This document shows, in pieces, positions 13,635 through 15,009 of a stretch of DNA of 64,000 bases. Position 1 is the stretch's first letter. Each line of letters begins with the position of its first letter. A program made the translations under genes and the position numbers. The stretch spans positions 1-64,000 of the forward strand of contig JADLEQ010000007.1 in NCBI GenBank assembly GCA_020846005.1. Direction: 5' to 3'. The notes under the pieces are model-generated. The model did not search any database, had not been told where the DNA came from, and saw nothing but the letters and a program-made list of their open reading frames with translations. Origin of the DNA: Polyangiaceae bacterium. GTDB taxonomy: Bacteria > Myxococcota_A > Polyangia > Polyangiales > Polyangiaceae.

Positions 13635-13961
13635 TCAATCCAGCTGGTGCACCAGCATCGCGATGGTGCCCGCGATGAAGAGCACGATGAGGACGAGCTT
13701 GCCGCCGTCGCGGCGCGCCTCCGGCACCGAGGTGCGTGTGGACTCGAGCTTCGCGAGCGCGAGCGTGGCGACGGCGGCCAGCCGCTTCTCCGCCGTGGAG
13801 CCGCGGTCACGATCGCCGGCCATCCCGCGGTAGCGCGCCGCGGCCTCGGGGAGCTGGTCTCGCTCGGCGCAGTGCTCGAGGAAGCCGCGGTGTGCGTCGT
13901 CGTCCTCCCACCGGTCGATCACGCGCTTCCACAGCGCCTCGAGGACCGGGTCGACGTTCAC
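13635..13961 (-). CDS. Small C-terminally anchored protein of unknown function
   Basis: Function unknown. This 108-residue protein has a helical, charged N-terminal part (ALWKRVIDRWEDDDAHRGFLEHC) and a single C-terminal transmembrane helix at about residues 88-105 (LVLIVLFIAGTIAML), followed by only a few residues, so it looks like a tail-anchored protein with the bulk in the cytoplasm. Start is GTG 13961. It lies 10 bases downstream of the Cys-repeat gene (13972-14403) and is the last gene of that three-gene operon, so it may anchor or regulate that protein at the membrane. Confidence 0.6.
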   Translation of the reverse strand: MNVDPVLEALWKRVIDRWEDDDAHRGFLEHCAERDQLPEAAARYRGMAGDRDRGSTAEKRLAAVATLALAKLESTRTSVPEARRDGGKLVLIVLFIAGTIAMLVHQLD

Positions 13962-13971
13962 TCGCAGGCCC

Positions 13972-14403
13972 TCAGCGCCCGGGGAGCCGCAGCATGCGGC
14001 GGAGCTCGCCGGTCACCCTGAAGTACTCGTCCCGCGCGAGCGGCTCGTTCAGGACGTGAAAGTCTCGCCCGGCGAGGCCCACGCAGCCGAAGCAGTACGT
14101 ACACCCCGTGAGGCCGGAGCTCCGCACCACGTAGGAGGAGTGAAAACAGCCGTCGCTCCCCTCACAGTGGCTGCACCCGACGAGCCCGCGGCAGTCGACG
14201 CTGTGGAGCGTGTCGAGGCAAGAGTCGCAGCGCACACAGTAGTGACAGCGCACGAGGCCGGTCGAGCTGCGGCAGAACGTCGAATCCGCGCAGCCCGCGC
14301 ACTCCACGCACTCGACGCACCGGACGAGCCCGCCGGCGCTCCGCGCCCGGCGGAGGGCCTCTAGGCGCTCCTCGAACTCGCGCGCGGACGCGACGATCGA
14401 CAT
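13972..14403 (-). CDS. Protein with four 24-residue Cys-rich repeats
   Basis: Function unknown. After a charged helix (residues 1-24) come four 24-residue repeats at 25-48, 49-72, 73-96 and 97-120, each opening with GL(V/T)xCxxC. Cysteines fall on a three-residue spacing: positions 5, 8, 11 and 14 in repeats 1 and 2, three of these in repeats 3 and 4, plus C20 and C23. In total 16 Cys occur in 143 residues. The regular period suggests a solenoid with stacked Cys columns, able to bind zinc, copper or an iron-sulfur centre; this is inference. There is no signal peptide. The 23-residue C-terminus is non-repetitive. I recall similar myxobacterial proteins under a misleading 'CaiB/BaiF' label, which the sequence does not support. 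Confidence 0.75.
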   Translation of the reverse strand: MSIVASAREFEERLEALRRARSAGGLVRCVECVECAGCADSTFCRSSTGLVRCHYCVRCDSCLDTLHSVDCRGLVGCSHCEGSDGCFHSSYVVRSSGLTGCTYCFGCVGLAGRDFHVLNEPLARDEYFRVTGELRRMLRLPGR

Positions 14404-14433: not shown

Positions 14434-15009
14434 TCAGGCGCGCAGGGCCCGCCGGAGGGCGGACGCCGCGTGGCGGGTCTCGGCCTCCTCGGCGTACTCC
14501 TCGAGGCGGCGGAGCCGCTGGTCGAGCAGCGGGCGCTTGTGGGGCGGCTCGGCGCCGAGCAGGCGCTCGAGCGCCTCGATCGCGTCGCGGACCACCGACT
14601 CCTCGACGTGCTCGAGGAGCTGGAGCATCACCGGCTGCTCCTCGGGGAGCTCGCCCACCTGAGCGCGGTACTCACGAGCGGCGCGCGTGATCGCGCCCCG
14701 GCCGTCCGCGGCCAGCAGTCGAGCGAGGAGGCGCTCCTGCTCGCGCCGCGCCGCGTCCATCGAGGAGCTCCCCGCGGCCACGATACGCGCCGCCTTCCTC
14801 GGGGGAGGCGCGGGCACCTCCCGCTCGGCGGGCTCGGGAGGTGGCGGCTCGACCCGCGGCTGCGCCGAGGCGGCGACCTGGCGTCGGGCCGGGCGCGCCG
14901 CGCTCGGCGCACCCGGCCGACGCGACAGCACGAGCTCCAGCTCCTTGCGCTCGCTCCCGCGGCCCTTGCGGCCGCGGCGGCGAGCGTCGCGCTCCTTGTC
15001 GGCATCCAT
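14434..15009 (-). CDS. Hypothetical charged protein with helical C-terminus
   Basis: Function unknown. The 191-residue protein starts with a basic segment (DADKERDARRRGRKGRGSERKE), has a Pro/Ala-rich stretch at about 40-75 and a compact helical domain at about 80-191 rich in Leu, Glu and Arg, which contains VMLQLLEHVEESVVRDAIEALERLL. The basic start and absent signal suggest a cytoplasmic, possibly nucleic-acid-associated protein. It is the first gene of the operon that continues into the Cys-repeat gene 30 bases downstream. It is divergent from the lipoprotein gene at 15150. Confidence 0.55.
   Translation of the reverse strand: MDADKERDARRRGRKGRGSERKELELVLSRRPGAPSAARPARRQVAASAQPRVEPPPPEPAEREVPAPPPRKAARIVAAGSSSMDAARREQERLLARLLAADGRGAITRAAREYRAQVGELPEEQPVMLQLLEHVEESVVRDAIEALERLLGAEPPHKRPLLDQRLRRLEEYAEEAETRHAASALRRALRA

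What the first reader, a model, noticed from the sequence alone, without database searches (positions are those of the whole stretch)
13972..14403. Four exact 24-residue repeats with cysteine columns, possible stacked metal-binding solenoid
All four repeats are exactly 24 residues long and share GL(V/T)xCxxC, with up to four Cys at positions 5, 8, 11 and 14. A constant period and three-residue Cys spacing imply stacked Cys columns in a helical solenoid. I know of no characterised metal protein with this design, and the common database label does not fit.
Basis: partly seen in the sequence, partly recalled or inferred. Interest (0 to 1): 0.65.

Follow-up and report, generated by a model that had tools for sequence, protein, structure and literature searches.

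The report
Bacterial thiol-cored beta-solenoid, beetle-antifreeze-like fold
The gene encodes a small, conserved but unnamed myxobacterial protein predicted to coil into a narrow beta-solenoid like that of beetle antifreeze proteins, with its core lined by cysteines; it is probably an intracellular binding scaffold rather than a metal protein or an antifreeze.

Summary
In detail: window 14403-13972 (minus strand, 143 aa) has four GL(V/T)xCxxC units exactly 24 residues apart. All 16 Cys fall on one phase of a 3-residue period. The gene is real: one full-length copy, orthologs in about half of the sampled genomes of its class, no Pfam or NCBIfam family. The unit is misread. Two AlphaFold2 models (window protein and an ortholog) give 3-residue strands every 12 residues, so each '24-residue repeat' is two 12-residue coils. 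The nearest solved structure, by fold (Z 11.3 and 7.1) and by sequence profile (E 0.0015), is Tenebrio molitor antifreeze protein, whose coil points residues 2, 5, 8, 11 inward, the same spacing as these Cys. Across 131 distinct homologs, 2,476 solenoid Cys are inward and 1 is outward; core Cys often swaps with Ser or Leu, and pairs six apart do not covary. That fits a reduced, packed core better than disulfides or fixed metal sites. The outer strand face carries a conserved ladder F43-Y55-H67-H79-Y91-Y103-F115, and a nearly invariant C-terminal cap follows. The insect Thr-x-Thr ice face is absent. Best guess: cytosolic binding scaffold; metal binding not excluded.

The parts
13972..14403 (-). 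Whole gene: 143-aa Cys-rich beta-solenoid protein, ATG at 14403, stop at 13974-13972
14338..14385 (-). Residues 7-22: N-terminal helix (cap), invariant F10 and L17; no signal peptide seen
   Evidence: absence of a signal peptide judged by eye from the sequence
14068..14328 (-). Residues 26-112: beta-solenoid of about seven 12-residue coils; strands 31-33, 43-45, 55-57, 67-69, 79-81, 90-93, 102-105; Cys at 29,32,35,38,44,53,56,59,62,71,77,80,86,101,104,107, all on the inward phase
14095..14277 (-). Outward aromatic/His ladder on the strand face: F43, Y55, H67, H79, Y91, Y103 (F115 just beyond), 12 residues apart
13975..14103 (-). Residues 101-143: last coil CTYCFGCVGL and C-terminal cap (K/R)DFHILNxPxxRxxYF, the most conserved part
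   Evidence: the same motif in a phage contig
14434..15009 (-). Upstream neighbour, 191 aa, unknown family; beside the Cys gene in 26 of 50 same-family loci
13635..13961 (-). Downstream neighbour, 108 aa, one predicted C-terminal membrane segment, unknown family; near the Cys gene in 26 of 50 same-family loci
   Evidence: membrane segment judged by eye

Best explanation
It is a cytosolic, single-copy structural or binding protein. Residues 26-112 wind into a narrow right-handed type beta-solenoid with 12 residues per coil, like beetle antifreeze protein. Every third residue points inward; the bore is so narrow that only small residues fit, and this family fills it with Cys, Ser and some Leu, making stacked columns of mostly reduced thiols that serve as the hydrophobic core. 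A helix caps the N-terminus and a nearly invariant motif caps the C-terminus. The flat outer strand face carries a stacked aromatic/His ladder, which I infer is the working surface: it binds a partner (protein, nucleic acid or a second copy). Shown by computation: phase, predicted fold, nearest structure, ladder, conservation. Inferred: reduced state, cytosolic location, binding role. Not known: the partner.
For: 12-residue strand spacing in two models, pLDDT 86-94 across the solenoid. Tenebrio AFP 1EZG Z 11.3, rmsd 2.5 over 81 residues, next unrelated chain Z 6.7; ortholog model again has Tenebrio AFP first, but only Z 7.1 against 6.9 for rank 2. Independent of AF2: profile-to-PDB search has 1EZG first, E 0.0015, almost gap-free. 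Inward phase: 2,476 Cys inward and 1 outward in 131 homologs; 1 charged residue in 2,772 inward cells against 28% outward. 1EZG's inward residues are 2, 5, 8, 11 (PMC8038014). Reduced-core reading: C+S fill most core positions, C and S exchange freely, mean phi for i,i+6 pairs is -0.08. Ladder: F43 99/99, Y55 81/99, H67 79/99, H79 61/99, Y91 91/99, Y103 71/99, F115 98/99.
Against: AF2 is known to over-predict beta-solenoids for perfect repeats (PMC11795689); only one of five window models reached 77 and the C-terminal cap is below 70. Foldseek alone gave no PDB match at E below 0.001. No partner is known; the most constant neighbour, dtd, is absent from this locus. Eight Cys are nearly invariant, which could also mean a chemical role. 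Without coordinates I could not measure S-S distances.
Confidence: 0.5

Rival explanations
1. Metal-thiolate protein: coils with four inward Cys (29/32/35/38, 53/56/59/62, 77/80/86, 101/104/107) each hold a metal ion (Zn, Cu or Fe) or part of a cluster, giving a row of metal sites inside the solenoid for storage, buffering or redox.
For: Up to four Cys in one coil, median 19 Cys per protein; C35, C38, C86, C101, C104, C107 near invariant; a cytosolic protein with this many Cys invites metal.
Against: Most core positions exchange Cys with Ser or Leu, and no fixed set of four is kept except around the last coil. No metal-handling gene was recognised among the neighbours examined. No match to a known metal-binding family.
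Confidence: 0.25
2. Disulfide-stapled or redox-switch solenoid: Cys six apart in a coil join as in beetle antifreeze protein, permanently or on oxidation.
For: The register matches 1EZG, whose Cys2-Cys8 pair is six apart; in this protein 32-38, 56-62 and 80-86 are both Cys.
Against: No export signal seen; Cys six apart do not covary (mean phi -0.08); many orthologs keep only one Cys of the pair.
Confidence: 0.12
3. AF2 artefact: the true fold is another Cys-rich type such as LIM-like zinc fingers or TNFR-like repeats.
For: Weak sequence hits to LIM proteins (E 0.05) and TNFR chains; published AF2 bias.
Against: The strict 3-residue phase with no charge inward is what a solenoid needs and zinc fingers do not show; the profile prefers 1EZG 36-fold over the best LIM chain.
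Confidence: 0.08
4. Bacterial antifreeze protein.
For: Nearest solved fold is an insect antifreeze protein.
Against: The Thr-x-Thr ice face is absent: Thr at the first outward position is 0% in all seven coils and replaced by F/Y/H; no export signal.
Confidence: 0.02

Closest known systems
Tenebrio molitor (beetle) antifreeze protein, PDB 1EZG/1L1I, consensus TCTxSxNCxxAx
   Same: 12-residue coils, inward residues every third position, small core residues with Cys columns; best match by structure and by profile
   Different: Insect, secreted, one disulfide per coil and a Thr-x-Thr ice face; here bacterial, apparently cytosolic, up to four inward Cys per coil, aromatic/His ladder instead of Thr, plus helix and C-terminal cap
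CxxC-repeat phage and giant-virus proteins (phrog_15341; 'Caib/baif family protein' of Campylobacter virus IBB35; Mimiviridae 'TNFR-Cys' protein)
   Same: Cys every third residue; profile match E 4.3e-7, structural matches, hhalign 97.5% to a Vibrio phage protein
   Different: Nearly every third residue is Cys in the phage proteins, the myxobacterial C-terminal cap is not seen in those read, function unknown; low-complexity similarity, common ancestry not shown
Internalin J (InlJ) leucine-rich repeat 'cysteine ladder'
   Same: Stacked Cys column along a solenoid core (title of the structure paper, cited in PMC3196904; details from memory)
   Different: Leucine-rich-repeat fold, one Cys column, extracellular; not tested here

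Membership tests
Insect antifreeze protein (1EZG type, Pfam AFP) | 12-residue-per-coil beta-helix with inward residues 2,5,8,11 | tested here: met
   (predicted, not solved)
Insect antifreeze protein (1EZG type, Pfam AFP) | Outward Thr-x-Thr ice-binding ranks | tested here: not met
   Thr 0% at the first outward position in all coils
Insect antifreeze protein (1EZG type, Pfam AFP) | Match to the Pfam family | tested here: not met
   no AFP match among 30 members
Insect antifreeze protein (1EZG type, Pfam AFP) | One disulfide per coil (Cys2-Cys8) | tested here: inconclusive
   i,i+6 pairs do not covary; redox state not testable
phrog_15341 CxxC-repeat phage proteins | Profile match | tested here: inconclusive
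   E 4.3e-7 over residues 23-107, but composition-driven similarity is possible
CaiB/BaiF CoA-transferase (the database label) | Match to the Pfam/NCBIfam family | tested here: not met
   no family
Metal-thiolate protein (metallothionein-like) | Bound metal | not testable with these tools
   -
Metal-thiolate protein (metallothionein-like) | Conserved set of Cys ligands | tested here: inconclusive
   six to eight Cys near invariant, the rest exchange with Ser/Leu

The most novel reading that the evidence does not exclude
The alternating four-Cys coils hold a one-dimensional row of metal ions or a metal-thiolate wire in the bore of the solenoid, a metalloprotein design not described before, kept as one gene in much of the Myxococcota.
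Probability: 0.1. Interest if true: 0.85.

Novelty: new variant of a known kind. Interest (0 to 1): 0.48.

Why it matters
It shows that the 12-residue beta-helix known from beetle antifreeze proteins has a widespread bacterial counterpart with no family record, adapted to a different surface and, apparently, to a reducing compartment. It gives a natural test of whether stacked reduced thiols alone can hold such a narrow core, and of whether they take up metal.

Tried and rejected
24-residue coil: rejected, both models give 12. Disulfides as the general rule: no covariation. Antifreeze: no Thr ranks. Informative domain fusions: none; long frames in family f16 are low-complexity tails or open frames. 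A fixed genomic partner: dtd (D-aminoacyl-tRNA deacylase) lies directly downstream in 28 of 50 same-family loci and in f6, f15, f18, f20, f22, but never in f13, f16, f36, f46 and not here. Viral relatives with the profile: none in IMG/VR at E 1e-3; a degenerate DNA pattern for the C-terminal motif found nothing. Padloc: nothing. Literature on the 'caib/baif' label for this protein type: nothing useful.

Full report
What is there. Window 14403-13972, minus strand, encodes 143 residues. Four GL(V/T)xCxxC units begin at residues 25, 49, 73 and 97. All 16 Cys are at residue numbers equal to 2 mod 3; in 200,000 random placements in the same stretch the most on one phase was 13.

The gene is real and widespread. 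It has 29 relatives at 34-54% identity in the genome collection, where named records include Sorangium, Minicystis and Labilithrix. Of 240 genomes sampled from its class, 112 match the profile, and 49 of 187 in a phylum-wide sample that overlaps the first; full-length matches are one per genome, further matches being weak. No Pfam, NCBIfam or Padloc family covers it.

The unit is 12, not 24. AlphaFold2 on 30 sequences places strands at 31-33, 43-45, 55-57, 67-69, 79-81, 90-93 and 102-105, pLDDT 86-94 over most of the solenoid, lower at both ends. An ortholog (L011, 23 sequences, mean pLDDT 82.3) gives the same spacing. The 24-residue look comes from Leu at 26, 50, 74 and 98, which most relatives lack.

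Nearest fold. VIA-align ranks Tenebrio molitor antifreeze protein first: 1EZG Z 11.3, rmsd 2.5 over 81 residues, against 6.7 for the next unrelated chain. With the ortholog model the same protein is first but weaker (1L1I Z 7.1, rank 2 at 6.9). Foldseek alone is not significant. Because AF2 over-predicts solenoids for perfect repeats (PMC11795689), support that does not depend on AF2 matters: the family profile finds 1EZG first in the PDB by sequence, E 0.0015, almost without gaps, although Cys-rich composition contributes. In 1EZG residues 2, 5, 8 and 11 of each coil point inward and Cys2-Cys8 are bonded (PMC8038014). That is the same spacing of three.

The core. In 131 distinct homologs, without selecting on phase, 2,476 solenoid Cys lie on the inward phase and one outside it. 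In 99 non-redundant sequences the inward residues are 67% Cys, 16% Ser, 11% Leu, with 1 charged residue in 2,772, against 28% charged outside. The 99 were filtered for a regular phase, so those two figures are slightly favourable; one search is not filtered. Cys is exchanged for Ser or Leu at most positions. Cys pairs six apart do not covary (mean phi -0.08); these correlations are not corrected for relatedness. I read this as a reduced thiol core, with metal or disulfides possible but unproven.

The surface. One outward position per coil is F43, Y55, H67, H79, Y91, Y103, continuing to F115: a ladder of stacked aromatic and His residues kept in 61-99 of 99 sequences. In the insect protein this position is Thr, part of the ice face; here Thr is 0%. 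The C-terminal cap (K/R)DFHILNxPxxRxxYF is nearly invariant and recurs in a phage contig (hhalign 95.3%). These are the likely working parts.

Surroundings. At this locus the order on the minus strand is a 191-aa unknown gene, the Cys gene, and a 108-aa probable membrane protein. In 28 of 50 same-family loci dtd follows directly, 0-30 bases from the matched end, and also in families f6, f15, f18, f20, f22; it is missing in f13, f16, f36, f46. In this genome dtd is on another contig (G000:C41). The link is suggestive, not universal, so I do not build a function on it.

How it most likely works. A thiol-cored solenoid holds a flat aromatic/His face and a fixed C-terminal cap for a partner. The fold is well supported by computation (I would put it near 0.85); the role is inference.

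Relation to the known. It works structurally like beetle antifreeze protein but fails its defining surface, so it is not filed there. Phage CxxC-repeat proteins look alike, but repeats of low complexity cannot prove descent.

Noticed in passing
L070 1303-1900 (Flavobacterium phage FL-1, KY421186.2): Annotated CDS APZ82901.1 reads an APIAPV frame; another frame reads a CxxC-repeat protein whose start (DKSLNGVSKDFAELHPDFEKQNETNYGCWNCSRC) resembles Vibrio phage AUR97411.1. The annotation is probably in the wrong frame.
   Followed up: partly
L069 1315-2010 (Campylobacter phage vB_CjeM_WX1): 231-aa hypothetical protein of almost unbroken CxxC repeats, between the portal protein and DNA ligase genes.
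   Followed up: partly
L076 4899-5103 (IMG/VR contig): Phage contig with the C-terminal motif FGCEGLRKKQYCILNKQYTKEEY beside apparent tail genes; cut by the contig end.
   Followed up: partly
window 13635-13961 and 14434-15009: Two unknown gene families that keep company with the Cys gene in about half of same-family loci.
   Followed up: partly
G000:C41:81682-82110: dtd has left the conserved Cys-dtd gene pair in this genome and lies elsewhere.
   Followed up: no
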